IMG/VR virus record: IMGVR_UViG_3300043420_001819
Location: 1-64,000 of that record
Reading direction: 5' to 3' (one strand)
DNA length: 64,000 bases
From: a virus
Made by a program: the position numbers and the translations under genes. Within the stretch, counting starts at the first letter, position 1. Every line of letters begins with the position of its first letter. Below, one piece after another: positions 29,640-62,226 of the stretch. The notes beneath the pieces are model-generated. The model had not been told where the DNA came from. It ran no database searches and worked only from the letters and a program-made list of their open reading frames with translations.

Positions 29640-29648
29640 TATAATCGT
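29640..29648 (-). promoter_or_regulatory. Candidate late promoter, lysis cassette
   Basis: ACGATTATA on the minus strand (edge at 29640) lies 31 nt upstream of the ATG at 29609, in a 64-nt gap. It is one of five identical or one-base-variant sites at the same distance from late genes. Confidence 0.65.
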
Positions 29649-29673
29649 ATGTTGTTAGTTGATATGAGCGTTG

Positions 29674-29952
29674 CTAAGTGACCAGCTCACTTTTTACAAA
29701 CTCGTCTACAGGTGGAATCTTTCCTGCGTGTGTAATATTCCCCCAAAAAAACGGATTAGTACTTTCTCCTATCCCTACAATTGGTATTTTTGGGTCATTC
29801 GTTGCTACTACATTCGCAACTGCTTCTTCCGTTGCTTCAACACCAAGTGCTTTTGCTAATGTTGAAACTGCCATACCTGCTAAAGGACCGCCTAATGCGG
29901 TCGCAATACCAGGTGCTACTGTACCTACTACACTTTTCCAATCAAATAACAT
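29674..29952 (-). CDS. Truncated holin paralogue, possible antiholin
   Basis: 92 residues. The first ~54 match the holin at 28740 at about 47 positions (FDWKSVVGTVAPGIATALGG...; NDP), then the sequence changes to an unrelated polar tail (GESTNPFFWGN...) with no C-terminal membrane helices. Codons differ at many synonymous sites between the copies, so protein sequence has been conserved while DNA drifted, implying function. It lies upstream of the lysis promoter and is expressed with the fibre genes. Antiholin is the leading guess; a chimeric remnant is the alternative. Confidence 0.6.
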   Translation of the reverse strand: MLFDWKSVVGTVAPGIATALGGPLAGMAVSTLAKALGVEATEEAVANVVATNDPKIPIVGIGESTNPFFWGNITHAGKIPPVDEFVKSELVT

Positions 29953-30011
29953 CTATTTTCCTTTACATTTATTATTTATTACATTGCTTCGGGTAATGGT
30001 ACTTTTCTATT

Positions 30012-31160
30012 TTATACTTCTAAATCTAAAATATGATTTTGTTCAGGTGTTTCATAGATATACGCTGCACCCGCATAAGCACCATTACTAGCGTCACCAT
30101 CATTATCTTCTTCAGGTGAACCAATAACAATTCTTCCTGAACCTATTGATATTGATGCACCATATATTAATGCACCATATCCAGACACTGAATTTAATGT
30201 TGTTAATAGATTTCCATCTAGGTCATATACATAAACAGATGAAATTCCATCACCTAATAATAATCTACCATCACCAACAGCAACACTACCTGTGGATAGA
30301 CTGGTGCTTGGTTTTTTTAGATTTCCATTTAAATCAAATATTGTAAACGTATTAAAACCACAAACTACAATTCTTCCTTGTCCAACTACCACTTGGTTAC
30401 CGAAGTTATTATTATTTTGAAGAATATTATTATATTTTTTAGTGATTAAATTTCCATTTAAGTCATAAATATATATTGCTCCACAATTTGTATAACCTTC
30501 TGAAATATTGTCAGATTGATATGCACCAATAACAATCCTTCCTGAACCTACTGCCACTGAATTACCATAATAACTATTATATGCTCCATCATAAGCAGTT
30601 AATTTAGTGATTAGATTACCGTCTAAATCATATACATAAGCAGAACCTGAATCAGTACCTTTATCATTATCATTCTGTGCCCCAATGACAATTCTACCGT
30701 TACCCACTGAAACTGAATAACCATAGTAATCAAAAACATCCCTATCATAAGCAGTTAATTTGGTTAATAAATTTCCATCTAGGTCATATACATAAACAGA
30801 ACCTGCAGAATCATCATCTTGATATGATCCAACAACTATTCTACCTGAACCAACTGCTACTGAAGCACCATAAAAATCATAATATGCTCCATCATACGGT
30901 ATTAATTTAGCAATTAAATTTCCATCTAGGTCATATACATAAGCAGAACCTGACCAAAGTCCATCAGAATAGTCAAAGAATGCTCCAACCACAATTCTAC
31001 CTGAACCAACTGCTATGGAAGAACCATAAAAAAAATCACCTCCAGCATCATACGCTACAATTCTATTTTCATTACTCGGTAAAGTAGTCGCATCATAAGC
31101 AGTTTGACCTATAAATTGTTTATCACCTTCTATATAAGATTTCGGTGTTATTAATGCCAT
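30012..31160 (-). CDS. Seven-repeat FG-GAP beta-propeller fibre protein 1
   Basis: A 382-residue protein. After an N-terminal adaptor (about 30 residues) come seven repeats of a ~50-residue FG-GAP-like unit (YG.SVAVGSGRIV(V/I)G....(D)...GSAYVYDLDGNL), the number needed for a seven-bladed propeller. Repeats 5 and 6 are degenerate and shorter. The acidic loops recall calcium-binding FG-GAP loops of integrins. Likely a receptor-binding tip. It is the most diverged of three paralogues; the two others are at 31779 and 32978. Confidence 0.75.
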   Translation of the reverse strand: MALITPKSYIEGDKQFIGQTAYDATTLPSNENRIVAYDAGGDFFYGSSIAVGSGRIVVGAFFDYSDGLWSGSAYVYDLDGNLIAKLIPYDGAYYDFYGASVAVGSGRIVVGSYQDDDSAGSVYVYDLDGNLLTKLTAYDRDVFDYYGYSVSVGNGRIVIGAQNDNDKGTDSGSAYVYDLDGNLITKLTAYDGAYNSYYGNSVAVGSGRIVIGAYQSDNISEGYTNCGAIYIYDLNGNLITKKYNNILQNNNNFGNQVVVGQGRIVVCGFNTFTIFDLNGNLKKPSTSLSTGSVAVGDGRLLLGDGISSVYVYDLDGNLLTTLNSVSGYGALIYGASISIGSGRIVIGSPEEDNDGDASNGAYAGAAYIYETPEQNHILDLEV

Positions 31161-31161
31161 A

Positions 31162-31758
31162 TTAAACTCCTACAGAATCAATTAAATCCCAAGTGGTATT
31201 ATCCTCAAAATCAATTCCATTTAAAGCACTTCTACTCTTCTGATACTGTCCAAGTAAAACACCATAAGCATCATCATAAGATGCTACATTTTCCATTACT
31301 TTTGTTACTAATTCTTCTATTGTAATACCACGACCTTCTGCAATTTTAGTTAATAAAGGTGTATCAATTGTATTATCATTTGTAAAATCAATTGCTTCTT
31401 TTCTTTGTATTGCCCAAGATTTAACTTCGTCTTCCAAATAATCACTTTGAAGTTGTTTAACAGAACCTTCAAATTTATCTTTGATTTGTCTTGTTTTTAC
31501 CTTCACCATATCTTTAAGAACTTTTAAAGCATCTTCATCAGAAGTAAATCTTTCTTTCACTTCAAAATTAGCAATGTAAGAACCATCAATATTATCTACC
31601 GTAGTAAAAGTCGCAATTTGTCTCCAAGTTACTGTCGGTCTATTCGATATTGTATCAACCTCAACCGCATCTTCAGGAATTTCTTGGTTTAGTCTATCAT
31701 CAAATCTATAAGGAAAATTTAAAACATTTCCCTCTGTATCTATTTGTGCATATGTCAT
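31162..31758 (-). CDS. Tail fibre assembly-like protein (DUF4376-like)
   Basis: A 198-residue protein. The N-terminus (YAQIDTEGNVLNFPYRF) is like fibre-associated adaptors. The C-terminal ~110 residues are helical with W.IQR.EAIDFTN..., TPLL..IAEGRGITIEELV and a LGQYQKSRSALN end, matching phage proteins of the DUF4376/tail-fibre-assembly type. It probably helps fold or attach the adjacent propeller fibres, between two of which it lies. Confidence 0.65.
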   Translation of the reverse strand: MTYAQIDTEGNVLNFPYRFDDRLNQEIPEDAVEVDTISNRPTVTWRQIATFTTVDNIDGSYIANFEVKERFTSDEDALKVLKDMVKVKTRQIKDKFEGSVKQLQSDYLEDEVKSWAIQRKEAIDFTNDNTIDTPLLTKIAEGRGITIEELVTKVMENVASYDDAYGVLLGQYQKSRSALNGIDFEDNTTWDLIDSVGV

Positions 31759-31778
31759 ATATTATCCTTTTTTATTAT

Positions 31779-32978
31779 TTATTTACAAATAATTCTTTCA
31801 AAATGTGTATCGTAAGTTTCAGGTAATTCGTAGATGTATGCTGACCCTGAATTAGAACCTAAATCATCATCACTATATACCCCAATAACAATTCTACCTG
31901 AACCAACTGAAGCTGAACCACCATAATAATCATTAAGTGCTCCATCATAAGCAGTTAGTTTAGTTATTAGATTTCCATCTAGGTCATAAACATATGTTGA
32001 CCCTGAATTAGAACCTAAATCATCATCTTGATATGCTCCAATAACAATTCTGCCTGAACCTACTGATACTAAAAACCCATACCGATCATCATCTGCTCCA
32101 TCAAAAGCAGTTAGTTTAGTGATTAAATTACCATCTAAATCATAAACATAAGCAGAACCTGAATCTGTACCTTTATCATCATCACGCCATGCTCCAATAA
32201 CAATTCTACCTGAACCAACTGCTACTGAAGCACCATAATAATCATCAACTGCTCCATCATAAGCAGTTAATTTGGTAATTAGATTGCCATCAAGGTCATA
32301 TACATATGCTGACCCTGAATTAGAACCTAAATCATCATCTAGATATGACCCAATAACAATTCTACCTGACCCTACTGCTACTGAATAACCATAATAATCA
32401 GCAGATGCTCCATCAAAAGCAGTTAATTTAGTTATTAGATTACCATCTAAGTCATAAACGTATGCTGAACCTGAATCAAAACCTTTATCGTCATCATAAT
32501 ATGATCCAATAACAATTCTACCTGAACCCACTGCTACTGAACGACCATAATAATCAGAAGCTGCCCTATCATAAGCAGTTAATTTAGTTATTAGATTACC
32601 ATCAAGGTCATAAACATATGCTGAACCTAAATAATTATCATCACGATATGCTCCAATTACAATTCTATTTGAACCCACTGCTACTGAACGACCATGATAA
32701 TCATAACCAGCTCCATCATAAGCAGTTAGTTTAGTGATTAAATTACCATCAAGGTCATATACATATACTGAACCTTTAAAACCATCATCTCCGTATGCTC
32801 CAATAACAATTCTACCTGACCCTACTGCTACTGAATAACCATAATAATCAGAAGCAGCTCCATCATAAGCAGTTAATTTAGTCACACTTCCAAGAATATC
32901 CGTAACTTCATCAAAACTACTATGTAACAACCCACCATCATTGATTATTTTAAAACCACTTGAATCTATAAATGCCAT
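31779..32978 (-). CDS. Seven-repeat FG-GAP beta-propeller fibre protein 2
   Basis: Start 32978 is chosen: its ATG overlaps the upstream stop (TAATG) and GGGAGAG lies upstream; the longer TTG start at 32993 overlaps that site. The 399-residue product has an N-terminal adaptor (~30 residues) and exactly seven close repeats (KLTAYDGA..DYYG.SVAVGSGRIVIGAY.DDD.G...SGSAYVYDLDGNLIT as the unit). Repeats are similar at DNA level too. Likely a seven-bladed propeller receptor-binding protein with acidic, perhaps calcium-binding, loops. Confidence 0.78.
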   Translation of the reverse strand: MAFIDSSGFKIINDGGLLHSSFDEVTDILGSVTKLTAYDGAASDYYGYSVAVGSGRIVIGAYGDDGFKGSVYVYDLDGNLITKLTAYDGAGYDYHGRSVAVGSNRIVIGAYRDDNYLGSAYVYDLDGNLITKLTAYDRAASDYYGRSVAVGSGRIVIGSYYDDDKGFDSGSAYVYDLDGNLITKLTAFDGASADYYGYSVAVGSGRIVIGSYLDDDLGSNSGSAYVYDLDGNLITKLTAYDGAVDDYYGASVAVGSGRIVIGAWRDDDKGTDSGSAYVYDLDGNLITKLTAFDGADDDRYGFLVSVGSGRIVIGAYQDDDLGSNSGSTYVYDLDGNLITKLTAYDGALNDYYGGSASVGSGRIVIGVYSDDDLGSNSGSAYIYELPETYDTHFERIICK

Positions 32979-34180
32979 TAATGTCTCTCCCAATCTTGTA
33001 AATCATACGGTGTTATACATGCTGAAGGTGTTTCGTAGACGTATGCCGAACCTCTATTATTATCTTGATATGCTCCAATAACAATTCTACCTGAACCAAC
33101 TGAAACTGAACGACCATATTGGTCATTAGCTGCTCCATCTGTACCAGCAGTTAATTTGGTTATTAAATTACCATCAAGGTCATAAACATATACTGAACCT
33201 GAATTATCACCATCATCATCATCTTGAATTGCTCCAATAACTATTCTACCTGAACCCACTGAAACTGAATAACCATAATTATCACTAGCTGCCCCATCTG
33301 TACCAGCAGTTAGTTTAGTTATTAGATTTCCATCTAGGTCATAAACATAAGCAGAACCTGAATCAGTATTACCATTGTCATCATCTCCATATGCTCCAAT
33401 AACAATTCTACCTGAACCTACTGATACTGAAGTACCATAAAAATCATAAGCTCCTCCATCATAGGCAGTTAGTTTAGTGATTAGATTTCCATCTAAGTCA
33501 TAAACATAAGCAGAACCTGAAGCATCACCATTATCACCATCATAAGATGACCCAATAACAATTCTACCTGAACCTACTGATACTGAAGTACCATAAGCAT
33601 CATTTTCTGCTCCATCATAAGCAGTTAGTTTGGTTATTAAATTACCATCTAAATCATAAACATATGCTGAACCTTTAGCAATTTCATCACTATATGCTCC
33701 AATTATAATTCTACCTGACCCCACAGAAACTGAATTACCATAAGTATCATATTCTGCTGCATCAAAAGCAGTTAGTTTAGTTATTAGATTACCATCTAAA
33801 TCATAAACATAAGCAGAACCTTGATAAGGAATTCCATCATCATCATAATATGCTCCAATAACTATTCTACCTGAACCAACTGATACTGAATTGCCATACC
33901 TATCAAGAGTGTCCCTATCATAAGCAGTTAGTTTAGTGATTAAATTACCATCCAAGTCATATACATATGCTGAACCTCTACTAATATCATCTGTATATGA
34001 CCCAATAACAATTCTACCTGAACCCACTGAACCTGAATTACCATATCTATCAGCATTTGCTCCATCATAAGCAGTTAGTTTATTCACATTACTAGGTAAA
34101 GTAGTTATCTCTCCACTTCCATACAAATAAGGAATACCATCAATAGTAGTTACTGCTTTGCCTTTACTCATAAACGACAT
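32978..34180 (-). CDS. Seven-repeat FG-GAP beta-propeller fibre protein 3
   Basis: A 400-residue paralogue of the neighbouring propeller. Seven repeats follow a ~30-residue N-terminal segment; repeats 6 and 7 carry a two-residue insertion (KLTAGTDGAA). The C-terminal tail after the last blade (ETPSACITPYDLQDWERH) is unique to this copy. Repeated nucleotide units shared with 31779-32978 invite homologous exchange. Likely an alternative or additional receptor-binding tip. Confidence 0.78.
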   Translation of the reverse strand: MSFMSKGKAVTTIDGIPYLYGSGEITTLPSNVNKLTAYDGANADRYGNSGSVGSGRIVIGSYTDDISRGSAYVYDLDGNLITKLTAYDRDTLDRYGNSVSVGSGRIVIGAYYDDDGIPYQGSAYVYDLDGNLITKLTAFDAAEYDTYGNSVSVGSGRIIIGAYSDEIAKGSAYVYDLDGNLITKLTAYDGAENDAYGTSVSVGSGRIVIGSSYDGDNGDASGSAYVYDLDGNLITKLTAYDGGAYDFYGTSVSVGSGRIVIGAYGDDDNGNTDSGSAYVYDLDGNLITKLTAGTDGAASDNYGYSVSVGSGRIVIGAIQDDDDGDNSGSVYVYDLDGNLITKLTAGTDGAANDQYGRSVSVGSGRIVIGAYQDNNRGSAYVYETPSACITPYDLQDWERH

Positions 34181-34189
34181 AATAACTCC

Positions 34190-34573: not shown

Positions 34574-34574
34574 T

Positions 34575-42751: not shown

Positions 42752-43708
42752 TTAATAGACCCCACAGTCAATTATGAGGTTATCAATATAATTTTTTGTC
42801 ACTAAAGAATGACTACTAACAATTTTGTCGTTTGATAATGCTGGAGCTAGGATAGTACCATCATAATAAACTTCAATTGCATTATACCTGTTGCTTGTAT
42901 CCGAACCAATACCTACCTCAAATATTGTTCCTGTTTTATTATCGTTGTATAAACCTAAAGTAGTTTGATAATTATTGTCTGCTCTTGTTCCTAAACCTAC
43001 TGAGAATGAATAATCTCCAGTAGCACCATTAGTATTATCGTTATCAAGTGAATAACTTAAATCAATAGACTGATTTCCTATATTCCCATAATACTCAGGA
43101 TTTCTTCCTCTTAGTCTCCATCCAATGTTTAAACCTTCAAGGAGTCTTTCAAGTTCTGAAGGAGATGAACCATTAGCCGCTGTAAGTCTTACGTAAATAC
43201 TACCAACAGTATCATCTATTAAAAGTGCTAAACCAGCCTGTAAAAATAACCCTGAAGTTGGCTCAACATTAGTTAAAGTACCATTTGTAGTGTCAATGTA
43301 TAGTTTATCCTTACTACTAAACCCAGAAGTATCTAGGTCAGTTACTTTTCCTAAAGATGCTACTTTTCCTACACCATCTGGTTCAATTTCAGTGGTAGTA
43401 AGCCCTAAAATATATGAAGGGTCAGTTGTAGTAGCTGGAGCAACTTTTATAAGTCCAGTATCTTCATCAACACCTGTTATCATTACAACGATACCATTTA
43501 TAATTGTTGAAGAAGTATCATTTATAACAGTGTGTAAAACTTCGTGCCCAAGTTGTAAGGACTCTCCTGATACTGCTAAGTTAATAGTATCTTCAATCTC
43601 GTTATATGTTAATGTTCCTTGGTCTTCAGGGCCGCCAACTATTTGTAATGAACGTACTTTGATAGGTATTATTTCTTCGCTTGCCCATGTTACTTCATTA
43701 ATTACCAA
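42752..43708 (-). CDS. Structural/fibre protein (318 aa), TTG start
   Basis: 318 residues. No ATG is available; a TTG at 43708 is preceded by a perfect AAAGGAGG site. The N-terminal ~180 residues form a beta domain (GTLTYNEIEDTINLAVSGESLQLG; VLHTVIND...IINGIVVMITG) like phage capsid-fibre or decoration proteins. The C-terminal part contains YSFSVGLGTRADNNYQTTLG, reminiscent of trimeric-autotransporter head repeats. First gene of a predicted late unit starting at the motif 43739-43747. Confidence 0.6.
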   Translation of the reverse strand: MVINEVTWASEEIIPIKVRSLQIVGGPEDQGTLTYNEIEDTINLAVSGESLQLGHEVLHTVINDTSSTIINGIVVMITGVDEDTGLIKVAPATTTDPSYILGLTTTEIEPDGVGKVASLGKVTDLDTSGFSSKDKLYIDTTNGTLTNVEPTSGLFLQAGLALLIDDTVGSIYVRLTAANGSSPSELERLLEGLNIGWRLRGRNPEYYGNIGNQSIDLSYSLDNDNTNGATGDYSFSVGLGTRADNNYQTTLGLYNDNKTGTIFEVGIGSDTSNRYNAIEVYYDGTILAPALSNDKIVSSHSLVTKNYIDNLIIDCGVY

Positions 43709-43738: not shown

Positions 43739-43747
43739 TATTATCGT
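43739..43747 (-). promoter_or_regulatory. Candidate late promoter, fibre unit
   Basis: ACGATAATA on the minus strand, 31 nt upstream of the TTG start at 43708, in a 74-nt gap. It has the same sequence and spacing as the other late sites. Confidence 0.65.
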
Positions 43748-43782: not shown

Positions 43783-44235
43783 TTATGATAAGGCTTCAGT
43801 ACATTTTAAATATACATTAGTTCCATCACAGAAATACTCAATCCAATATGTTCCTGCTGTATTTATTGTTGTTAAAAAATTTGAGTCTACTAAAATAGAT
43901 GCACCTAATGTAATAGTACGAGGGGTTGTATTAACTAATATAACTGTACCAATTTGTCCAGATGCACTAGCAATATTTGTGAATGTTAATGCACCATTTG
44001 CTGTTGGAGTACACTTAAAATTATTTTTACTGTTTAAGTCAAAACTTAAATCATTATCTGTTAGTAATGTTCCTCTTTGGGGAGCTGAGAAAGTGTGTGC
44101 TGTAGCGATAAAATTAGTAAATAATGTATTTATTTGAGTTTGTGTATAAACTTTACCCCAATTTGTATTAAGAATTTGTCTCCAAGCAGTAGCCCCTATT
44201 TCTAAAGTTTCTATCCCATTTGCTAAGATTGCCAT
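43783..44235 (-). CDS. Small tail structural protein (150 aa)
   Basis: 150 residues. The N-terminus (TLEIGATAWRQILNTNWGKVYTQTQIN) is a common phage tail/fibre-adaptor element. The rest is beta-rich (GTLLTDNDLSFDLNSKNNF; GTVILVNTTPRTITLGA; YWIEYFCDGTNVYLKC), typical of small tail proteins. It follows the tail tip protein by 21 nt. Probably a fibre-attachment or tip protein. Confidence 0.62.
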   Translation of the reverse strand: MAILANGIETLEIGATAWRQILNTNWGKVYTQTQINTLFTNFIATAHTFSAPQRGTLLTDNDLSFDLNSKNNFKCTPTANGALTFTNIASASGQIGTVILVNTTPRTITLGASILVDSNFLTTINTAGTYWIEYFCDGTNVYLKCTEALS

Positions 44236-47174: not shown

Positions 47175-47911
47175 TATATTGACTCCAAAGAAGGATTTTT
47201 AGGCGGAACTAATGGAAATCCACCGAAATTAGTTTTATTATTAAATTTTACTGAGCAAGTACTATATGATTTATCACAACCTTGCTTTAAAGAAATTACT
47301 GATGGTGTTTGGGTTATTCTAGTGTCAAGGTATAATACACCCCCAGAATCATGCTTTAGTATATATGCTGTTTCTGTATTATTAGTTGTAAGTACTCCTC
47401 CAGTATATAAACCAGTACTTCCCGCTATTGATGGTACAGTTACAGCATTTTGACTTCCTGCAACAGTAAACTCAGTTATATTAGTGGTATAGGCAGAGGA
47501 GCTTAATCCGCAATTACCATCATATAAGATAAAAGGACAACTTGTACTATAAGTACGATAAGGAACTTCACTATCAAAAAACACCTCTTTCTTTTTAAAT
47601 TTTAAATCAACTTCAAATCTTTCCCTATCAAAGTCCAATTTAACTAATATTCCACTAAATATTTCTAAACCACTCGCATAATCATAAATATTTAAGAATA
47701 ACTCTGCACTAGGGGCGTATAATACAAATTTAGTAAAAGGGTCAGTATCTAGCTTAGTTGTAACTCTAACTTCAGAATCAGTTAACTCCATAGTCAACTC
47801 AGTTCTTGCAAATGATGAGGCTGAGTAAATATACCCATTATACTCTATATCATCAGCAGATGCAGCATATCTATATGTTAGTCCTTGGTAAGTTACTTTA
47901 TACAATTCCAC
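47174..47911 (-). CDS. Tail hub protein, DUF2163/BR0599-like (gpL analogue)
   Basis: 245 residues, GTG start with GGGAT upstream. The C-terminal block YSTSCPFILYDGNCGL ... GCDKSYSTCSVKFNN.TNFGGFP is the diagnostic phage BR0599/DUF2163 region. Its four cysteines correspond to the metal-cluster site known from lambda gpL. It forms the hub that receives the tube and central tip protein. A candidate late promoter lies at 47941-47949 inside the upstream gene. Confidence 0.82.
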   Translation of the reverse strand: MELYKVTYQGLTYRYAASADDIEYNGYIYSASSFARTELTMELTDSEVRVTTKLDTDPFTKFVLYAPSAELFLNIYDYASGLEIFSGILVKLDFDRERFEVDLKFKKKEVFFDSEVPYRTYSTSCPFILYDGNCGLSSSAYTTNITEFTVAGSQNAVTVPSIAGSTGLYTGGVLTTNNTETAYILKHDSGGVLYLDTRITQTPSVISLKQGCDKSYSTCSVKFNNKTNFGGFPLVPPKNPSLESI

Positions 47912-47923: not shown

Positions 47924-48982
47924 TTATAGCTGTATCAAACTATAATCGTTGTATAGCTCTATTATATTTAATTTAACCGATGATTTATTAATATCATCTA
48001 AGTCAAAACTAATAGTATCTGTATCTAATCTACAAAAGTATAAAAACTGTGCATTAAGACATGAGCTAGTACTTAACCCATCTGGTAACGGAGTATCAAG
48101 TACGATAACATCACAAGTACCGTATGTTTCATTTACTTTACTTTCACAAGAAGTAATTACCCCAAAGTAGTTATAATCAGGTAAGTATAAAATCTTTGTA
48201 ACCTGATTTAATGCCATTGCTGCGAATGAATTTTTTATTACTAAAAAATTTTCTCCACCTATAGGTTGTTCAGCTATTGATAGTTCAGGAATAAAAGAAG
48301 GAAATAAAAATGATTTGTATTTACCTTTTAAGGTACTAAACCATGACTTTAAAGCTAACCTATCGTAAACGTCGTCTTGTTTTAAAGTTACTGAAAATTT
48401 CTTATAAGGGTTCTTATCAGATATTCTGTACTGCTTTTGAAATTCTTCACCAGCTACTACATACTTATGGTCTAAAACTTCACTAACACTATCAAAAATT
48501 TCAAAAGGAAACATTGTTTTTGAAAGAATAGGCAGAACTTCAATAGGTAAATCTACATAAGCTGTGTCTGATGGAGACATCCATGTTGTATTAAGAGTTG
48601 CAGTAGTTGTAGGTCCAACCATTCTTACTCTTATGGTATTAATGCCAATAGGAAGCGTTATTGCCCCAACTCCACTATTAAGAGAAGAAAATGCTACATA
48701 TTCTCCATTTACAAAAATATCTGCCCTTACATTAGCTCCAACTATTACTTTAAAGTAATATTCCCCATGCTCTACAATATTTATGTCAGACTCTAAAACT
48801 GCAAATACTGATGAGGGTGTATTAAGATAATCTGTTGTAACAATATTCAAAGAATCTACATAAAAATTACTTGCTAATAAACTATTACGTTGATAAGTAG
48901 TCTGTATTTCATCCATTCCGTAATAAGTATTAGGTAAGGTATATCCCGATGCATCATAGTATTTAATAAAAAATCTTTTCAT
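47924..48982 (-). CDS. Distal tail/minor tail protein (352 aa)
   Basis: 352 residues. The C-terminal half (about 170-352) has the look of lambda gpM/DUF2460-type distal tail proteins (RISDKNPYKKFSVTLKQDD...LKSWFSTLKGKYKSFLFP; TISFDLDDINKSSVKLNIIE). The N-terminal ~150 residues include a PA14-like jelly-roll segment (VRADIFVNGEYVAF; LPIGINTIRVRM). It is placed exactly before the gpL-like hub gene, matching the lambda M-L-K/I-J order. Confidence 0.62.
   Translation of the reverse strand: MKRFFIKYYDASGYTLPNTYYGMDEIQTTYQRNSLLASNFYVDSLNIVTTDYLNTPSSVFAVLESDINIVEHGEYYFKVIVGANVRADIFVNGEYVAFSSLNSGVGAITLPIGINTIRVRMVGPTTTATLNTTWMSPSDTAYVDLPIEVLPILSKTMFPFEIFDSVSEVLDHKYVVAGEEFQKQYRISDKNPYKKFSVTLKQDDVYDRLALKSWFSTLKGKYKSFLFPSFIPELSIAEQPIGGENFLVIKNSFAAMALNQVTKILYLPDYNYFGVITSCESKVNETYGTCDVIVLDTPLPDGLSTSSCLNAQFLYFCRLDTDTISFDLDDINKSSVKLNIIELYNDYSLIQL
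47941..47949 (-). promoter_or_regulatory. Candidate late promoter, tail hub gene
   Basis: ACGATTATA on the minus strand, 30 nt upstream of the GTG at 47911. It lies within the last codons of the 47924 gene (encoding YNDYS). Spacing equals that of the four intergenic sites. Confidence 0.5.
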
Positions 48983-52305: not shown

Positions 52306-53808
52306 TTAACTTAATTTAATTGCAAAATAGTGATTTCCAACAGAAACATCTCCATCAGCTAATACTACATAATCATTAGCCCCAATAGTGATAATATCTT
52401 CTACTGATGCCTGTGATGATGCTACTACATAAACACCCGTAGCAATCCCAATAGCATGAGAATTATAAGATATATTTACTGCCGCCATATATGTTGTATT
52501 TGAAATAGAAGTGAGACCACTTAATTGAGTATTAATACTACCAACCGTTGAATTAACATACCCACTATAACCTAATCTATAACTATTATTACTACTATAC
52601 ATTAAGCCACTTCTAAAAGACGTATTAATACTAGTCCAAAGGTATGTTGATGTTGTTGTAGTACCTGCAGTAAATACAGCATTACCATCATTCCCTAACG
52701 CAGTTATTTTTCCAATATACCCAGTTTGGTAAAGGGGTGTGCTCCTAATAGCAGTTTCATCATGAAGTTTATATGAAATACATACTCTATCTTGAGATAC
52801 GACTAACCAATATTTTTTTAATGTAGTAGATATTGGGCTTACTCCTGCTAAATATTTTTTAGTGCTCTCTAGCCCAGCGGTAGTTGTAACATTTTCTGTC
52901 GTACCAAATACAGTAGTATCCATAGTATAAAGTGGACTTTTAAGTTCAATATTATTACTACTATTCATACCTATGTATATAGTTATTTTAGAACCATTTG
53001 TAGTAGTATTTGAATAGTATCCACCAGGATACGCTCCAACATTATAAGTATAATGCTCAAATACATTAGCATCTGAGGGTAAAACTTTTGTAGTTTTAAG
53101 AGATAAAGCTGTAATCTCTGTTTCAGTTAGAACTTTATCCCAAACAATTATTTCGTCATATGATGTAGTTGTAGTAGACCCATGAATTTGATAAAGGATA
53201 CCATAATGCGTATAAGTACTCTCTATAGAATGTGAATTTATATACGTACCATTAATATAAAACTTAACCTCAGAGTCCGTAGTAGAATATGTAAATGTTA
53301 ATAATTCCCAATCCCTACCTGTTTTATCAGCAAAATAATCATCCATACAGCGAGTAAATGTCTCAAGCCAACGTTCATTAACGGTGATAGCTGCATCTTT
53401 TCCAAAACCTAGTCTTGGCCCCATCCGTAAGGCTGCTGTATTATAAGGTCCATCAATTACTTTTGTAGGATAATATGTTGATGCTGTATCAAGCAAACAA
53501 TCATCCATTTTTATCCACATAGATATTGAGAACTCAGTAGGGTATTGAGTAAAATATGCAGCGTCTAGTTCAGCTTTTGTATAATTAGTACTAGTAAAAT
53601 AATTATCAGGGTTTAAACGTAACCCTATTGTATCAGAGTATTTTCCGGGTCGTGTGCTACATGAACCAGTTAAAACAATACCTCTTGATGTAGTTAAAGA
53701 CCCACATGTTCCTTCTTCAAGTTTTTCCCAACCCTCTCCGGCTAGGAGAGTGTCTAAATCTGCAAACATTTCATTGAAGTTTTTTTCAACACCTACTATA
53801 TATGCCAC
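52306..53808 (-). CDS. Tail protein with LamG-like domain (500 aa)
   Basis: 500 residues. After the docking-like N-terminus, about residues 85-235 resemble a concanavalin/LamG jelly roll: PTEFSISMWIKMDDCLL, then RDWELLTFTYSTTDSEVKFYINGTYINS and YDEIIVWDKVLTETEITAL. Such domains bind glycans. The C-terminal half is beta-rich and unclassified. It directly follows the tape measure gene. Confidence 0.68.
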   Translation of the reverse strand: MAYIVGVEKNFNEMFADLDTLLAGEGWEKLEEGTCGSLTTSRGIVLTGSCSTRPGKYSDTIGLRLNPDNYFTSTNYTKAELDAAYFTQYPTEFSISMWIKMDDCLLDTASTYYPTKVIDGPYNTAALRMGPRLGFGKDAAITVNERWLETFTRCMDDYFADKTGRDWELLTFTYSTTDSEVKFYINGTYINSHSIESTYTHYGILYQIHGSTTTTSYDEIIVWDKVLTETEITALSLKTTKVLPSDANVFEHYTYNVGAYPGGYYSNTTTNGSKITIYIGMNSSNNIELKSPLYTMDTTVFGTTENVTTTAGLESTKKYLAGVSPISTTLKKYWLVVSQDRVCISYKLHDETAIRSTPLYQTGYIGKITALGNDGNAVFTAGTTTTSTYLWTSINTSFRSGLMYSSNNSYRLGYSGYVNSTVGSINTQLSGLTSISNTTYMAAVNISYNSHAIGIATGVYVVASSQASVEDIITIGANDYVVLADGDVSVGNHYFAIKLS

Positions 53809-53818: not shown

Positions 53819-56800
53819 TTAACGTCTGATAGCGTTGTTAATTATTTGTCTTCCAGCTCTTGAGCTAAGGTATTGCTCAATTACTGACTCATCCATTGAG
53901 TTAACGATAACAACTTCTGATGATTGAGCTGCAGGAGCTGCAGGCTGTTTTGAAGCTTGATTAATAGCTTTTAAGTCATTTCGAGAAAGTACATACTCTC
54001 CTGTTTGAAGAATAGCTGGAACTTCATCTCTTTTCAATCCTGTTTTATTATCGTTAGTTACGTAACCCCCTGTGTGGTAAGTTTGTGCTTTAATCTGTGC
54101 AACTTGTGCCATACCTGCAGCTATTTGCCCTGCTGCAAGTACTGGACCAAGGAATGGGCCACCTTCAGCGAGTGCTTTAGTCGCACCTACATAGGTATTA
54201 ACAATTGCTTGTGCAACTTGTGCTGCTTTATATACTGCAAAGGCTGCCTTACTTTTTTTGCCAGATAATAAGTAAAATGCTTCAGCTATTTGTCCCATAG
54301 CTCCGAAACCTTTTCCATATAAATCAACAGTTCTATTAAACTCTGCTTCTTTTAGTTTATTATCTTTTTCTCTAATAGCCGCTAACTCTGCGGTATGAGC
54401 TTCTTGCATTTGTAACTCAAGAGCATTAATTTCTTTTTGCATTTCAAGTTTTTTCTGCCCTTCAGCCATAGTATCAAACTGTGCTTCATACTCTGCTTTC
54501 TGTGCTGCAAGAGTATTATAATGAATTTGGTATAATCCAATTTGTTCATTAAGTTGCTTATTTAGCTCCATAGTATATAGTGTATAATCAGTATCAGACC
54601 CAGCACCAAATCCTACAACTTCTTTTTCCATTTTAGCTTTAAAAGTTAAAGCAGATATAAGTGTTTGTTTAGCTGAAACAAGACTCATCTGTGCGAGAGC
54701 ATCTGTTTTTGTATATCCTGCATCTAATAATTTTTGAAGCTCATCTAATCTGTTAATTTCAGCAGTATTAACATTTGTATCATTTAAATAATCAAGTGCA
54801 GTTGCCTTCAATAATAACCTAGCATGATACTGCTCATACGTTGCTGCAGTAATTTGGTTTTGAGTAGATAAAATTTGCTTATCAATATTTGCGACATCAG
54901 TATCAACTTTTTTAATTTCAGTTTGAAGGAATTGAGATTTTTCAAGTAGCTTATTCTTTTCTAGAAGGTCTTGTTTATTAGAAGAATTATGCTTAACGAT
55001 ATCTTTTTCTAATTGATTTTGATCAGATAGTAACTTATTAAGGTATTGAGTAGTCTCTGCTTTACTCTTCATTAAATCATTCTGTATCCCACCTAGCTCA
55101 TTTATTTTTGTAAAAGTTGTTGCATCTCCATTTTGTAGTGCAGAAAACCTAGATGCTGTTAAAAAACCTTTATTTCTTTCAACATTGTAATCTTTTTGTT
55201 GTTTTAAATGCTCCTGAGTTAAATCAATTGCCTTTTGCTCATCAATATTTCCTAAATTACTCAACTTATTTTGTGCCGCATCTATATCAAGAATATCTTG
55301 TTTAATTTTTGCATAAGTTTTAAACGCTGCAACTAATCCTTCTAGTTGTGTTCTTTCTTTATCTGTGCTTGCTACAGTATTCTTAATAGCATCTTCTAAT
55401 TCATTAAATAGTCTAGGTAAATCTTCAATTTTTGCTTCTTTTAATTTATTAGAGAACTCAGCTGCTAAATCACCGGCTACTTTACCACCATCAATATTAA
55501 ACTGCTCACTAACCCAATTAGTTAATTGTTTTTCTAAGTTAGAGTTCATTTGTATTGCTGTTTGTTTAAAATTTTCTACAGCAACATTACTTCTTTCTGT
55601 AACATTAATATTATTTTGATACAAAGTTTGTATATCAGTTGCAATCTGTTTTAAATTTTTAATATATTCATCAGATACAACCTTTATTACTTCAGTTTGT
55701 TTATCAGACAGTTGTATTGCACTAGGTTGGCTTGCTAAAGGTACTGTACTATTTGTTGATGTAAGTTCTTTAAGATTTTCAACATTTAAATCACCATTTG
55801 TATTAATAAGAACTTTTTTAAAGTCAGGTAACTTTCCTTTTCCCTCCCCTATTCTTATAACAGCTTGTTTCGTTTGCTCATTAACTTCTAAAACTACATC
55901 ACCTAAACCTGCTATTTCATTTTTATACCGTTGTAGTTCATCAACTAACCTAGTAGCTTCTTGTATAGAAGATGTGCCTATTTCAATACCAGGCCCAGAT
56001 AGGGCTGTTGATGTTTTAGTAGACCCAACAACAGTAGACTGGGAAACATTTGCAAGAGTACCACCAGTAATATTTAATGGCATACTAAGTTTTTTCTCAA
56101 TGTTATCTACTAGGGTTGAAAGTTCTTTAATACTCCCTGGCTTAAGCCCTGATTTAATAGTCTCTTCGAGTACTGGAATTAGTCTTTGAGTTGCATTAGC
56201 AGCTTTTTGACTAGTAACGGCACTATTTGTGAGAGCATTTGCAGCTTCTACAGTTCTATCTGAAAGCTCTGTAGTAACAGTTGACTGCTCATTTAACCAT
56301 TTTATTAAGTCAGTCATAGCAGCTTTATTTTTTCCACTTGAAAAATCAGCATTTTTAACAATTTCTTGTTGTTTTTTAAGGATAGCAACTTCGTCAGTAA
56401 TTGCATTTACTAGTAGTTTATTCTTAGGGTCTGCACCTTTTAAAGCACTATCAAGAGTATTTAACATACTTGTTATAACTTTATCAATCTCTTGTTGTGC
56501 TTTTGTTCCTGTTATTGCTGTTAATTCAGGAGTTTGTCTTACATAAGCTTGAGCATAAGCAGTAGCTGAACCTAAATTTTCTCTAGTATCTAACAAAGAA
56601 TTTGTAATCTGCAAAGTAGCATTTAACTTAGATATTTCAGATTGATTCTTATCAATCTCAAGTGCTATCTTAATTTTATTATTCCCTGTTGCAGTTCTGT
56701 ATTGGCGTTGTAAATCACGAATTTTATCAGATATTGCTTGAATATTTTCTTCAATACCTAAAGTTTCTATTTCATTTTTAGTCCCTCTAATTGCATCGGC

Positions 56801-59800
56801 TGCGTAATAAGCAGCAGTACCTATTGCTGCAATTGCAAGAATTACTGGATGGCGTAATATAGTATTAAGTGCAGCTTTTAGAAGACCAACTGCACCACTA
56901 AGTATTCCTACTCCACCTGCTGCTGATGCAGCTGCACCACCAAATACACCTAAAGCTCCTACTCCATGTATAAGGAAAGGTGTAATTCCAATTAATACCA
57001 TATTTTTTAAGGCATTAACCAAACCAATTACTGTAGTTGTTGCTGCCCCTGCTTTTGTGATAAGTAACCCTAAACCAACAGTTCCAGCTATAATACTTAT
57101 ATTATTGATAAAATTATCTTTAAACTCATCCCAGTTATCACTTACTTTTTTAATTACTAAAGATATTTCTGACATTTTTTGGGTAAGAGATTCAACACCT
57201 TTAAATACTATTGGTAAAATATTTGTAGCTAATTCATTAAATGCTATCCCTAAAGAGTTACCTAATTTTTCCCATGTAATAGCATAACTTTCTGTTACAT
57301 ATGCTGCTTTGTCTACTTCTCCCTTAACTCCTGCGTTAAGTTTAGATAAATGTCTAAAAAACTCATCAGCATTGTTTCTTAATAACGTTAAAGACTGTCT
57401 TGCTAGAATATCCATTCCAGAAGTTAACTGTGAAAAGTCAGCATCACTTAAATTCTTTAATTTATTAATTAGCTCAGTCATTGCTTTATTGGATTCCTTA
57501 GTATCCAAATTTAGTCTTGTCATAAATGACTTTTGGTTAATACCTAATGAGCTATAGAAATAATCCATATCTGAGGAAGATTCAGATAATGTTGTTGCAA
57601 AACGTCTAATTTGAGTACCAATAGTAGATGCATTAACCCCTGCATTAGAGAAAGCAGTAGCCATTGCTAGTACAGCATTTGCAGTTATCCCTGATGACTT
57701 AGCTGCTGCAAGAGCATAGTTAGATAATGTTCCCAAATCTTGAGTAGATAAACGAGATTGATTAGCTGCATAAGCTAATTTATCGGCAAAATCAGTAATA
57801 GTATCTGTTGTACCTGTTACTGCGTCTTTTACATCACCAAATACCTCATTAAAAGTAATAAGAGCACTAGCAGAAGTTGCAAAAGTATCCCCAGTTAATC
57901 TTGCCATTTTAATAACGTTTTCTGTTGCTTCTGCTACGTTATTAGATGCAATACCAGCACGTCCAAGTGCTAGTGCTGCCTCATTAATATCTTTTAAGTT
58001 ACCACCATAAGTAACAGATAGTTTTGACAAATTACGCTCTAACCTATTAGCAGAATTAGCAGACATATCTAAAACAGCTGATAAGGTATGTTGCGCTTGG
58101 TCAAACTCAACGGAGTATTCAATACCTTTTTTCATAGTATTAATAACTTGATAAATACCTGCATATAAACCAGCATAAGCTAAAGCTCTATTTGCAATAT
58201 TTCCTAACCATTTAACTTTAGACATTTTAGATAACTCAGCACTAACTTCTTTAGTTCTTCTTTTAGTAGCATCTAATTCTTTTTCTAATTTAATTGTTTC
58301 AGAGGTAGCGTCTTGAATAGCGTCTATAGGTGCTGATTTAAAACTAGTATCAAATTGTTTTTTTGATTTTTCTGCTTTATCAATAGAAATTTTTAATTCA
58401 TCTAATTGAGAAATTGCTTCATTAAGTGTAGAACGAGGAGCCCATTTAAGTTTAGTATTAATTAATCTTTCTAGAGCTGCCTTTTGGTCTCTGTAAGAAG
58501 CAAGAATTTTATCATAGTTTTTATCAAATTCTATTTTTTTATTAAAAGTGCTCTTAAGAGTATTCATTTTATCTTGAAGATACCCTACTGCCTTAGAATC
58601 ATTTAATATTTCTGTACCAAAAGCCCTTAAAGATTGTGTAGTTTGATTATACTCTTCAGGTTTAATAGTACCTGCTTTTAAGTTTGCGGCAGCTTCCTTC
58701 TCAAGGGCATTAGCTTGTTTTAATACTTCTATCTTTTTATAAATTGTAGCTAATTCAGCTTTAGCAAGAGCAGGGTCAGCTGTACCTTGTTGTAATTCTT
58801 TAGAAACTTCTCTTACTTTTACTTTTAACTGTGATAAAACAGAAAGAGAATCAGGTGTAAACCCTTGTTTTATCCCGGCAATCTCTTTGTTTAATGTCTT
58901 TGCTGCCTCCCTAGCATTTACAAAACTTTTAGAAAGGTCTAATCTTGAAGATGCTTGTTGTACTTCTGTAATAACACTATTTACATTTTTTAAACCGTTT
59001 TGTAATGAAGTTACATAAGCATTAACTCCACCAGTAGATAATTTTGTTGGAGCTTTCGATAGTAGTCCCTCTACCTTTAATATTTCTGCTTGTAAAAGTT
59101 GTTTTGCAGCATTTGCTTTGTTAAGGTCCTCTGTAGCCGCTGAAGGTCCTTTTTTAACTAGTATATTGTCTAAAGATTCTTTTTGCTTTTTTAGGGCACT
59201 CAAGGTATCTTCAACTTCTTTTTTAGCTTCCTTACGAATTGATAATAGATTTTTTTCTTTAGTTGAAAGGCTAGTATATAAATTAGAAGATGATTTTAGA
59301 GCAGCTTCTACTTCTTGTACAGATATTGCATTAGCTGCTAAAGCATCTTTCATAAGGCTAAGTTTATTAACAGTAGAGTCTATTTTTTTGGAATCAATTT
59401 GTAGAGAACCAAACTTTGCAATTGCATCATCAATTTTTAGTGTTTTATTATATGTATTAGTTAAATGTTTTTGTAAAGTAAATAAACCGCTTGTATCACC
59501 TGTTTTATCAATATTTTTACTTAGCTCAGTAAAATTACCTTTTAAACTACGGATTACTCCACTAGATATACCTAAATTTTTTAAAGAATTAATAAGATTA
59601 TTAACATTATCCTTAGTACCTTCTACAGTATAGTTTAGTGCTTGACCTAAACCCTTAAATTGTAAAGTACTAGAACCTACTTGACTTGCTAAAAGTTTAA
59701 ATCTATTTTCTAACTGTGGTGTTAACTCTCCATCTGCTTCACTAATCGCATCTTGAAAATCTTTTACTTTTGAAACAATCTTTTGTATTTGTTGGCCTAA

Positions 59801-59974
59801 TTTATTATATTGTGCAGACATTTTATCTAATTGGGCTGGATTTGCAGAGAGTATTCTATTAGCTTTCTCTCTTTCCTGCTCTAATGCTGTACCTAACTTA
59901 GTAATTGTTCTAAATAGGTCTGGAGCACCCTTCTGTACAAAGTCAATATTTAATTCAATAGTATTTTTAGCCAT
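53819..59974 (-). CDS. Tail tape measure protein
   Basis: 2051 residues, the longest gene. Long helical N- and C-terminal regions flank a conserved tape-measure core (LAYAANQSRLSTQDLGTLSNYALAAA; GVNASTIGTQIRRFATTL), and a hydrophobic segment at about residues 965-1065 probably inserts in the host membrane during DNA entry. Lambda (853 residues, ~135 nm tail) implies a tail around 300 nm. It begins 30 nt after a candidate late promoter. The C-terminus (RAGRQIINNAIRR) resembles others of the family. Confidence 0.92.
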   Translation of the reverse strand: MAKNTIELNIDFVQKGAPDLFRTITKLGTALEQEREKANRILSANPAQLDKMSAQYNKLGQQIQKIVSKVKDFQDAISEADGELTPQLENRFKLLASQVGSSTLQFKGLGQALNYTVEGTKDNVNNLINSLKNLGISSGVIRSLKGNFTELSKNIDKTGDTSGLFTLQKHLTNTYNKTLKIDDAIAKFGSLQIDSKKIDSTVNKLSLMKDALAANAISVQEVEAALKSSSNLYTSLSTKEKNLLSIRKEAKKEVEDTLSALKKQKESLDNILVKKGPSAATEDLNKANAAKQLLQAEILKVEGLLSKAPTKLSTGGVNAYVTSLQNGLKNVNSVITEVQQASSRLDLSKSFVNAREAAKTLNKEIAGIKQGFTPDSLSVLSQLKVKVREVSKELQQGTADPALAKAELATIYKKIEVLKQANALEKEAAANLKAGTIKPEEYNQTTQSLRAFGTEILNDSKAVGYLQDKMNTLKSTFNKKIEFDKNYDKILASYRDQKAALERLINTKLKWAPRSTLNEAISQLDELKISIDKAEKSKKQFDTSFKSAPIDAIQDATSETIKLEKELDATKRRTKEVSAELSKMSKVKWLGNIANRALAYAGLYAGIYQVINTMKKGIEYSVEFDQAQHTLSAVLDMSANSANRLERNLSKLSVTYGGNLKDINEAALALGRAGIASNNVAEATENVIKMARLTGDTFATSASALITFNEVFGDVKDAVTGTTDTITDFADKLAYAANQSRLSTQDLGTLSNYALAAAKSSGITANAVLAMATAFSNAGVNASTIGTQIRRFATTLSESSSDMDYFYSSLGINQKSFMTRLNLDTKESNKAMTELINKLKNLSDADFSQLTSGMDILARQSLTLLRNNADEFFRHLSKLNAGVKGEVDKAAYVTESYAITWEKLGNSLGIAFNELATNILPIVFKGVESLTQKMSEISLVIKKVSDNWDEFKDNFINNISIIAGTVGLGLLITKAGAATTTVIGLVNALKNMVLIGITPFLIHGVGALGVFGGAAASAAGGVGILSGAVGLLKAALNTILRHPVILAIAAIGTAAYYAADAIRGTKNEIETLGIEENIQAISDKIRDLQRQYRTATGNNKIKIALEIDKNQSEISKLNATLQITNSLLDTRENLGSATAYAQAYVRQTPELTAITGTKAQQEIDKVITSMLNTLDSALKGADPKNKLLVNAITDEVAILKKQQEIVKNADFSSGKNKAAMTDLIKWLNEQSTVTTELSDRTVEAANALTNSAVTSQKAANATQRLIPVLEETIKSGLKPGSIKELSTLVDNIEKKLSMPLNITGGTLANVSQSTVVGSTKTSTALSGPGIEIGTSSIQEATRLVDELQRYKNEIAGLGDVVLEVNEQTKQAVIRIGEGKGKLPDFKKVLINTNGDLNVENLKELTSTNSTVPLASQPSAIQLSDKQTEVIKVVSDEYIKNLKQIATDIQTLYQNNINVTERSNVAVENFKQTAIQMNSNLEKQLTNWVSEQFNIDGGKVAGDLAAEFSNKLKEAKIEDLPRLFNELEDAIKNTVASTDKERTQLEGLVAAFKTYAKIKQDILDIDAAQNKLSNLGNIDEQKAIDLTQEHLKQQKDYNVERNKGFLTASRFSALQNGDATTFTKINELGGIQNDLMKSKAETTQYLNKLLSDQNQLEKDIVKHNSSNKQDLLEKNKLLEKSQFLQTEIKKVDTDVANIDKQILSTQNQITAATYEQYHARLLLKATALDYLNDTNVNTAEINRLDELQKLLDAGYTKTDALAQMSLVSAKQTLISALTFKAKMEKEVVGFGAGSDTDYTLYTMELNKQLNEQIGLYQIHYNTLAAQKAEYEAQFDTMAEGQKKLEMQKEINALELQMQEAHTAELAAIREKDNKLKEAEFNRTVDLYGKGFGAMGQIAEAFYLLSGKKSKAAFAVYKAAQVAQAIVNTYVGATKALAEGGPFLGPVLAAGQIAAGMAQVAQIKAQTYHTGGYVTNDNKTGLKRDEVPAILQTGEYVLSRNDLKAINQASKQPAAPAAQSSEVVIVNSMDESVIEQYLSSRAGRQIINNAIRR

Positions 59975-60003
59975 AAATAACCCTTAGTGAGTAATAATTA
60001 TCC

Positions 60004-60012
60004 TATAATCGT
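60004..60012 (-). promoter_or_regulatory. Candidate late promoter, tape measure gene
   Basis: ACGATTATA on the minus strand, 30 nt upstream of ATG 59974, in a 41-nt gap. Identical to the sites at 29640 and 47941. Confidence 0.65.
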
Positions 60013-60015
60013 ATT

Positions 60016-61105: not shown

Positions 61106-61136
61106 ATATTTCTCCTAAAATTTAAAACTAAATAGT

Positions 61137-61152
61137 GAGGGCAAAAGCCCTC
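61137..61152 (-). terminator. Hairpin after tail tube gene, partial terminator
   Basis: GAGGGC-TTTT-GCCCTC on the minus strand, 5 nt after the tube gene stop, then ACTATTTAGTTTT. The 6-bp GC-rich stem with a tetraloop and a late T-run suggests attenuation or transcript stabilisation. Confidence 0.55.
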
Positions 61153-61157
61153 TGGTA

Positions 61158-62186
61158 TTAATAGTGAGCTACTAAGATTGCTTCACCAATTGTTGCATCT
61201 TCATACGCCTCGAACTCAATTTTGTTTTCAAGGATACCATCAGCATCTTCAATAGAAACTGAAGTATATCTTACACGTGGGAAGTAGATAGCAAATTTGT
61301 GAGTACCTGATGTCATTTCAAGATAAACAGCACCATCAGTGTTGTTTTTAAACTTGTTAAGTTCAGTGTAATCTTCAAAAGTAACTGACATTGACCCTGA
61401 TACAACTTTAGCAGTTACTGCTTTATCAGAGATACCTTCTGTAGTGATAGCTTCTCTATCTGATACAGTGTTTTCAATTGTGAAAGAAAGGTCTTTCGCT
61501 TCATAAGATACACCGTCAACAGTAAATGTAGCATTTTTACCTACATATGGGTTTTCAGTAATTGCAGTACCCACAAGAATTGTTTCACCAGAAGCAGTTG
61601 TATACCCAGCAGCACCCATATCAAAAGAGATAGTTGCAAGGTCAGCAACAGGGAAATCAAATGTTACACTTCCTGGAACAATACCAGTATATGTGATAGT
61701 TTGACTATCTGATGCATCACATCCAAGCATTTGCTTAACTGCCAATGATGGTTGGTCACCACATGGTTTAGCAAGTTTATAAAGTACAGCTGTACCTGTT
61801 TCACCACTCTGTGCTTCATAGATTTCATAAGCAGGTGTAACACCATCATCAGAGAATCCAATAAATGCACCAGTACCAAGACCAGCATCTTCACGTACTC
61901 CAAGAGCAACTTCAAGAAGAGCAGAACCATTAAGGTCGTCTGATGAATTTCCTAGAGGAATAAGTTCTACACCAAGAGTTCCACTTCCATAGATTTTTCC
62001 AGCAAGTTTAGGCGCACCAATGAAAGAGTTTTTAATTGCTTTTCTTTCAATAGAATCACCTTCTGGACGGAGTGCAGTGTCATTAGTTACCTCAACAACT
62101 TCGCTGTTTGTAAATGTACCGCCTGAATTAAATGAACTCTCTTTGAGAATTGCATATACGGCACTATTTGAACGATAAATAGCCAT
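61158..62186 (-). CDS. Major tail (tube) protein
   Basis: 342 residues. A beta-rich protein in the canonical place between terminator and chaperones. Features: N-terminal AILKESSFN, then ELIPLGNSSDDLNGSALLEVALG, an Ala/Gly-rich VADLATISFDMGAAGY and a terminal VSIEDADGILENKIEFEAYEDA. These resemble tail-tube proteins with a beta-sandwich fold. It is stacked as hexamers around the tape measure. Expressed from the candidate late promoter at 62218. Confidence 0.82.
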   Translation of the reverse strand: MAIYRSNSAVYAILKESSFNSGGTFTNSEVVEVTNDTALRPEGDSIERKAIKNSFIGAPKLAGKIYGSGTLGVELIPLGNSSDDLNGSALLEVALGVREDAGLGTGAFIGFSDDGVTPAYEIYEAQSGETGTAVLYKLAKPCGDQPSLAVKQMLGCDASDSQTITYTGIVPGSVTFDFPVADLATISFDMGAAGYTTASGETILVGTAITENPYVGKNATFTVDGVSYEAKDLSFTIENTVSDREAITTEGISDKAVTAKVVSGSMSVTFEDYTELNKFKNNTDGAVYLEMTSGTHKFAIYFPRVRYTSVSIEDADGILENKIEFEAYEDATIGEAILVAHY

Positions 62187-62217
62187 TATAATGTCCTTTT
62201 GTAAGTTTTGTCACAAT

Positions 62218-62226
62218 TATTATCGT
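62218..62226 (-). promoter_or_regulatory. Candidate late promoter, tail tube gene
   Basis: ACGATAATA on the minus strand, 32 nt upstream of ATG 62186, in a 51-nt gap. The most abundant tail protein is a natural target for a strong late promoter. Confidence 0.7.

What the first reader, a model, noticed from the sequence alone, without database searches (positions are those of the whole stretch)
29640..62226. Late-promoter motif ACGAT(A/T)ATA at fixed distance from five late genes, likely read by the phage sigma factor
Seen: the minus-strand 9-mer ACGATAATA or ACGATTATA lies at 62218-62226, 60004-60012, 47941-47949, 43739-43747 and 29640-29648. The near edge is 30-32 nt from the start codons at 62186, 59974, 47911, 43708 and 29609 in every case. 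Four sites are in small gaps totalling about 230 nt, where well under one match is expected from base composition. Targets are the tube, tape measure, tail hub, fibre unit and lysis cassette. Known: sigma-28 (FliA) -10 elements contain CGATAA. Inference: the FliA-like sigma factor at 19439-20011 drives these promoters, probably without a conserved -35 box. A weaker copy (ACGATTATT) occurs 24 nt before rep.
Basis: partly seen in the sequence, partly recalled or inferred. Interest (0 to 1): 0.88.

Follow-up and report, generated by a model that had tools for sequence, protein, structure and literature searches.

The report
Phage sigma factor's late-promoter code
A short DNA word, ACGAT(A/T)AT(A/T), sits just before most of the structural gene blocks of an uncultured phage and its relatives, almost certainly as the switch that the phage's own RNA-polymerase adapter (sigma factor) uses to turn on late genes, and sister phages have changed that word at all of these promoters together.

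Summary
ACGATWATA is present at all five stated places, 29-31 nt before the start codons. The full 83.4-kb record adds the predicted capsid-operon site (28 nt before portal) and one on the opposite strand before the terminase operon. In all, 9 of 105 genes carry ACGATWATW 19-42 nt upstream; about 0.1 is expected. An unbiased k-mer search returns the same word first. In eight clade relatives, mostly at about 70% nucleotide identity, the word is kept upstream of portal, tube, tape measure, hub, fibre and terminase-operon genes. It is also kept inside the tape-measure and protease genes, where codon changes leave the 9-mer intact. Sister clades carry a different word at orthologous genes: (A/C)CGATATA, C(T/C)GATATA or ACGATTTT. 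The four states need only the minimum of three changes on the phage tree. Each of six near-complete genomes encodes exactly one sigma-70-family protein, in an operon headed by a consensus host sigma-70 promoter (12/12 in five of these six, 11/12 in one). No -35 element is conserved in this clade. That the phage sigma reads the motif is inferred. The mechanism resembles phiEco32 gp36 and T4 gp55; the FliA-like specificity and clade-wide respecification appear new.

The parts
62218..62226 (-). Late-promoter element ACGATAATA, 31 nt before the tail-tube gene (61158-62186)
   Evidence: conserved before the tube gene in all 9 clade-A genomes (27-31 nt)
60004..60012 (-). Late-promoter element ACGATTATA, 29 nt before the tape-measure gene (53819-59974)
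   Evidence: conserved in all 9 clade-A genomes
47941..47949 (-). Late-promoter element ACGATTATA inside the 3' end of gene 47924-48982, 29 nt before the tail hub/assembly gene 47174-47911
   Evidence: found in 7 clade-A genomes although the downstream proteins are only 43-47% identical
43739..43747 (-). Late-promoter element ACGATAATA, 30 nt before fibre-region gene 42752-43708
   Evidence: gene has no homologue in relatives, but their fibre-unit gene (homologue of 43783-44235) carries the motif
29640..29648 (-). Late-promoter element ACGATTATA, 30 nt before 29286-29609, first gene of the lysis cassette (endolysins at 28260-28730 and 27862-28263)
   Evidence: no orthologous gene in relatives, so conservation not testable
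54046..54054 (-). Late-promoter element ACGATAATA embedded in the 3' end of the tape-measure coding sequence, 237 nt before gene 52306-53808
   Evidence: longest invariant nucleotide run in the last 450 nt of the gene across six diverged genomes; first codon changes AAC/GAC while the 9-mer stays
25512..25520 (+). Variant element ACGATTATT, 23 nt before gene 25544-26647 (no family match)
   Evidence: ortholog in G001 has ACGATAATA at 21 nt, G006 lacks it
19439..20011 (-). Phage sigma factor, 190 aa: sigma region 2 plus region 4, no region 3
23779..23807 (-). Consensus host sigma-70 promoter TTGACA-N17-TATAAT in front of the operon that carries the sigma gene
   Evidence: 12/12 in 6 of 7 genomes, 11/12 in the seventh
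22903..23703 (-). First gene of the sigma operon (unknown function), followed by an ACP-like gene, SbcD, SbcC, sigma and a ligase-like protein
18029..19438 (-). 469-aa neighbour of sigma: Cys4 zinc motif and C-terminal clamp-binding-like QLSLPF; best fold match a DNA ligase (weak)
61137..61152 (-). Terminator-like hairpin directly after the tube gene

Best explanation
ACGATWATW is the -10-type element of the phage's late promoters. The 190-aa phage sigma factor (19439-20011), made early from an operon that starts with a consensus host sigma-70 promoter, replaces host sigma-70 on the host RNA polymerase core. It directs initiation about 7 nt downstream of CGATWA, giving leaders of roughly 20-25 nt before the structural, packaging and lysis genes. 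Recognition rests on one extended -10 element read by a FliA-like sigma region 2; in this clade no -35 sequence is needed. Shown here: the motif, its position, its conservation (including at DNA level inside coding sequence), its clade-specific variants, and the sigma gene with its host-type promoter. Inferred: that this sigma reads it, the start site, and the late timing.
For: Enrichment 9 observed against about 0.1 expected. An unbiased k-mer search ranks CGATTA, CGATTAT and ACGATTAT first. Conserved upstream of orthologous late genes in 9 genomes, mostly at about 70% nucleotide identity. Predicted capsid and terminase sites found. DNA-level conservation of an embedded copy. The clade-specific motif matrix is almost diagonal and the four states need the minimum of 3 changes on the MCP+portal+tube tree. 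One sigma-70 region-2 protein in each of six near-complete genomes. Best profile match FliA, E 1.5e-11, whose consensus is TAAAGTTT-n11-GCCGATAA (PMC2859248). Conserved host sigma-70 promoter heading the sigma operon. Precedent with the same anatomy: phiEco32 gp36, single element tAATGTAtA, start 6-8 nt downstream (PMC8948821).
Against: No transcript ends or in vitro data. The sigma protein has a recognisable region 4 (27.6 bits, cut-off 24.1) but clade A shows no clear -35; only clade B has a conserved C at -18 from the motif. Sigma sequences are known for clades A and C only, so sigma-motif co-variation is untested for B and D. Several exact copies inside genes of this genome look like chance or codon effects, so not every match is a promoter.
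Confidence: 0.85

Rival explanations
1. The host's own sigma-28 (FliA) reads the motif; the phage sigma serves something else.
For: FliA core -10 CGATAA matches CGATWA (PMC2859248); hosts of these phages are unknown and may be flagellated.
Against: No TAAA-type -35 octamer at n11 in any clade; conserved letters extend beyond the FliA element (WATW, or TTTT in clade D); the word changes with phage phylogeny; each near-complete genome carries its own sigma.
Confidence: 0.07
2. The motif is the site of a phage transcription activator, or an RNA leader or processing element, not a sigma -10 element.
For: Position about 30 nt before start codons would also fit a leader element.
Against: Copies 231-269 nt upstream of the next gene, inside coding sequence, are conserved, so a leader element is unlikely; T at position 12 and purines at 13-14 fit a start site 7 nt after CGATWA; a sigma gene is present and no known phage RNA polymerase subunit was found (the single-subunit search had no positive control).
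Confidence: 0.06
3. Chance or codon artefact (Asn-Asp-Asn codons in an AT-rich genome).
For: Five exact copies in the window lie inside genes without conservation, several of them as N-D-N or N-D-Y codons.
Against: Upstream enrichment, conservation across about 30% nucleotide divergence, sister-clade variants at the same places.
Confidence: 0.01
4. T4-like system: the sigma and its neighbour 18029-19438 act as a gp55/gp33 pair coupled to the sliding clamp.
For: Neighbour co-conserved with sigma in 6 of 6 genomes; C-terminal QLSLPF/QLSLPI/QMSLPF resembles a beta-clamp-binding peptide (the resemblance is from memory).
Against: Neighbour's best fold match is a DNA ligase (6ras, E 4.6e-4, low-confidence model), for which clamp binding is ordinary; the sigma keeps its own region 4, which gp33 replaces in T4.
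Confidence: 0.05

Closest known systems
phiEco32 gp36 sigma factor and its middle/late promoters (tAATGTAtA)
   Same: Phage-encoded sigma on host core; single 9-bp -10-like element, no -35; upstream of structural genes; early genes on host sigma-70 promoters
   Different: gp36 lacks region 4 (PMC8948821), this sigma has it; element ACGATWATW with a FliA-like CGAT core; siphophage with a T5-distant capsid instead of a C3 podophage
Phage 7-11 gp47 sigma and its late promoters (GTAAtg-16-aCTA)
   Same: Related phages keep promoter locations but not promoter sequence
   Different: 7-11 and phiEco32 sigmas were acquired independently (about 15% identity, PMC8948821); here the sigmas of clades A and C are homologous (31-34% identity) and in the same operon, so the word drifted with one sigma
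T4 late promoters with gp55/gp33/gp45
   Same: Late genes driven by a diverged sigma at a -10-only element
   Different: No gp33 homologue recognised; sigma has its own region 4; clamp coupling not shown
Sigma-28 (FliA) and its promoters TAAAGTTT-n11-GCCGATAA
   Same: CGATAA core; sigma region 2 is closest to FliA among solved structures by profile
   Different: No -35 octamer, no sigma region 3, scores 47-49 bits against FliA family cut-offs of 190-201

Membership tests
Sigma-70 family sigma factor (ECF-like two-domain) | Regions 2 and 4 present | tested here: met
   Pfam Sigma70_r2 41.0 bits (cut-off 24) and r4 27.6 (cut-off 24.1); TIGR02937 73.4 (cut-off 42.9); two helical domains joined by a low-confidence linker 79-109
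FliA/WhiG family sigma | Score above family cut-off | tested here: not met
   47.0 against 189.6 (TIGR02479) and 48.7 against 201 (NF005413)
FliA/WhiG family sigma | Region 3 between regions 2 and 4 | tested here: not met
   Residues 79-109 have pLDDT under 50 and no domain; only regions 2 and 4 matched in Pfam
Sigma-28 promoter | -10 core CGATAA | tested here: met
   CGATWA in every clade-A site
Sigma-28 promoter | -35 TAAAGTTT at n11 | tested here: not met
   No such conserved column pattern upstream in clade A
phiEco32-type phage-sigma promoter | Single -10-like element upstream of late genes | tested here: met
phiEco32-type phage-sigma promoter | Start site 6-8 nt downstream, transcription by core plus phage sigma | not testable with these tools
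   Sequence only; T at position 12 and purines at 13-14 after the motif start are compatible
phiEco32 gp36 sigma | No region 4 | tested here: not met
   Region 4 is present
T4 late transcription system | gp33-like coactivator and clamp dependence | tested here: inconclusive
   Neighbour has a clamp-binding-like C-terminus but looks ligase-like

The most novel reading that the evidence does not exclude
One phage regulon of about ten promoters has been respecified several times within a single lineage: ACGATWATW, (A/C)CGATATA, C(T/C)GATATA and ACGATTTT occupy orthologous genomic places and their cognate sigma factor drifts with them. Some promoters are written inside coding sequence and kept there despite amino-acid change. 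That makes the lineage a natural series for reading the code between sigma region 2 and the -10 element.
Probability: 0.6. Interest if true: 0.75.

Novelty: new variant of a known kind. Interest (0 to 1): 0.62.

Why it matters
It gives an early-to-late transcription cascade for a phage lineage that has no cultured member with detectable close similarity in the phage collection searched: host sigma-70 promoter, then phage sigma, then single-element late promoters. It also gives four related promoter words at orthologous positions, with sigma sequences for two of the four, which makes promoter-specificity change in a sigma factor directly testable with purified proteins. The words can be used to find transcription units and late genes in uncultured relatives.

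Tried and rejected
(1) T4-like gp33 role for the 469-aa neighbour of sigma: raised because of its C-terminal QLSLPF, then weakened because the fold search points to a DNA ligase. (2) The copy before the DnaB-like gene at 15709: not kept before that gene in G001 or G006, treated as chance. (3) In-gene copies at 17766, 34318, 42937, 43033 and 49498: not found at the corresponding place in relatives, treated as chance or codon effects. (4) Finding the sigma of clades B and D with profile searches A1 and A4 and with the neighbouring genes SbcD and 22903 as bait: no new contigs; clade-B contig G011 stops at SbcD, just short of the expected sigma gene. (5) Search for cultured relatives: none close; capsid protein only 28-29% identical to T5-like phages; tube and sigma no match. 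(6) Search for the single-subunit RNA polymerase family PF00940: empty, but the control did not ring, so uninformative. (7) The paper on sigma-28 contacts (PMC2756079) is not held, so residue-to-base assignments were not made.

Full report
Observation. The window has 12 exact copies against 1.12 expected. The window is bases 1-64000 of an 83,427-base virus record; the rest was fetched. Late genes on either strand therefore carry it.

Statistics. With 105 genes called, 9 have ACGATWATW 19-42 nt upstream of the start. The outside rate predicts 0.09 (P about 1e-15). Dinucleotide shuffles of the windows give 0.10 on average and at most 2 in 2000; random pseudo-starts give 0.17 and at most 3 in 5000; 3000 scrambled motifs hit at most 5 genes. 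Counting all 6-, 7- and 8-mers in these windows without a prior motif puts CGATTA, CGATTAT and ACGATTAT first.

Relatives of the same clade. The tube protein retrieved nine contigs at 72-80% identity plus one distant one; eight of these nine, with this genome, form clade A, and the ninth (G007) belongs to clade B. Outside near-identical pairs they share 68-77% nucleotide identity over aligned parts. The motif lies 26-31 nt before portal, 27-31 before tube, 26-39 before tape measure, 24-32 before the hub/assembly gene, 21-25 before the fibre-unit gene and 23-29 before the terminase-operon gene. For G006 the called portal start is too early, and the motif sits 30 nt before the start inferred by eye. 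Both near-complete relatives keep the sigma gene at 60-61% identity. Over 43 distinct sites the motif letters are fixed by the search pattern itself; outside them the conserved positions are few: mostly A or G just after the motif, T at position 12 and purines at 13 and 14, which would put a start site about 7 nt after CGATWA. No -35 pattern appears.

Embedded sites. The copy in the tape-measure gene (54046-54054) is present in all nine clade-A genomes, 233-269 nt before the next gene. In an alignment of the last 450 nt from six diverged genomes, the longest invariant run is exactly ACGATAATA. Only 5 of 63 amino-acid-invariant columns there are codon-invariant, and the first codon changes between AAC and GAC while the 9-mer stays. 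A second embedded copy lies in the protease gene 231-262 nt before the major-capsid gene in all nine; in clades C and D the major-capsid gene instead has that clade's word 32-35 nt before its start, and in clades B and C gene 52306 has one just upstream. These coding copies are therefore probably promoters too, for capsid protein and for 52306. The protease alignment is less clean: in G004 the copy is shifted relative to the others.

Sister clades. More distant relatives found through tube and major-capsid proteins carry other words at orthologous places. Clade B: mostly (A/C)CGATATA, for example 12 genes against 0.145 expected for CGATATA in G011 (P 1.6e-19). Clade C: C(T/C)GATATA. Clade D: ACGATTTT. 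The site-by-genome matrix is diagonal except that CCGATATA is shared by B and C. On a tree of major capsid, portal and tube, A, C and D are each one group at 100/100 and B is paraphyletic to C; the four states need three changes, the minimum. The clades were defined by their motif before the tree was built, so the tree is a fair test of them. Clade B also shows a conserved C 18 nt upstream of the motif (35 of 48), with a trace in A, which would be a minimal -35 contact.

The sigma factor. Each of six near-complete genomes (three of clade A, three of clade C) has exactly one sigma-70 region-2 protein. It sits after SbcD and SbcC and before a 469-aa protein. It has regions 2 and 4, a disordered linker and no region 3. 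Its profile matches FliA best among solved structures (E 1.5e-11), yet it is far below FliA family cut-offs. Clade A and C proteins are 31-34% identical and differ in the segment aligned with FliA region 2.3-2.4. The operon starts with TTGACA-N17-TATAAT in six of seven genomes (five of the six near-complete ones plus clade-B contig G011) and an 11/12 match in the seventh, at 23779-23807 here. This places the sigma under host RNA polymerase and completes an early-to-late cascade. No beta'-type polymerase gene was found.

Known systems. phiEco32 gp36 uses a single element tAATGTAtA with starts 6-8 nt downstream; 7-11 gp47 uses GTAAtg-(16)-aCTA at similar genome positions with an independently acquired sigma (PMC8948821). 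An earlier computational study of 7-11 had predicted a different motif that needed a one-base gap to match phiEco32 (PMC4331800). T4 late transcription uses gp55, gp33 and the clamp without upstream sequence recognition (PMC2988020). The present case works like phiEco32 but is not a member: the sigma has region 4, the core is FliA-like, and the word changed in step with a homologous sigma.

Open points. The link sigma-to-motif is inference. Sigma sequences of clades B and D are missing because their contigs are fragments. The host is unknown; one clade-B contig was binned with a Desulfobacterales assembly, which may be misbinning. Gene starts in relatives were called with a simple script, so individual distances may be off by a few codons.

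Noticed in passing
window 22660-22893 (-): Small acyl-carrier-protein-like gene inside the sigma operon, between SbcD and gene 22903.
   Followed up: no
window 18029-19438 (-): 469-aa protein conserved next to sigma, Cys4 zinc motif and C-terminal QLSLPF; weak fold match to a DNA ligase. Possibly a diverged clamp-binding ligase.
   Followed up: partly
window about 670-715 and 1265-1287 (+): Palindromes GTTACACCCGTGTAAC and GTTACACGTGTAAC upstream of early genes 718 and 1287; relatives G001 and G006 have other repeated words upstream of several genes (CACATGGAAC, ATCTAACTTTT). Possible operator of early genes.
   Followed up: no
window 28740-29255 and 29674-29952 (-); 28260-28730 and 27862-28263 (-): Duplicated genes in the lysis region: two PHROG 1544 proteins and two endolysin-like proteins.
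   Followed up: no
window 30012-34180 (-): Three proteins with similar repeat-like N-termini in the fibre region (30012, 31779, 32978).
   Followed up: no
L027 (G001 record 64745-69327): DNA polymerase gene of relative G001 is split into three pieces; an ORF in the gap (65480-66190) has ACGATTATA 21 nt upstream, perhaps an intron or homing endonuclease carrying a late promoter.
   Followed up: no
L024 and L028 (G001 record 1904-2824 and 88529-89449): Identical promoters at both ends of the G001 contig suggest a long terminal repeat or overlap of about 3 kb.
   Followed up: no
L009:16848-16923 (record 79848-79923): tRNA-Met gene near the right end of the record.
   Followed up: no
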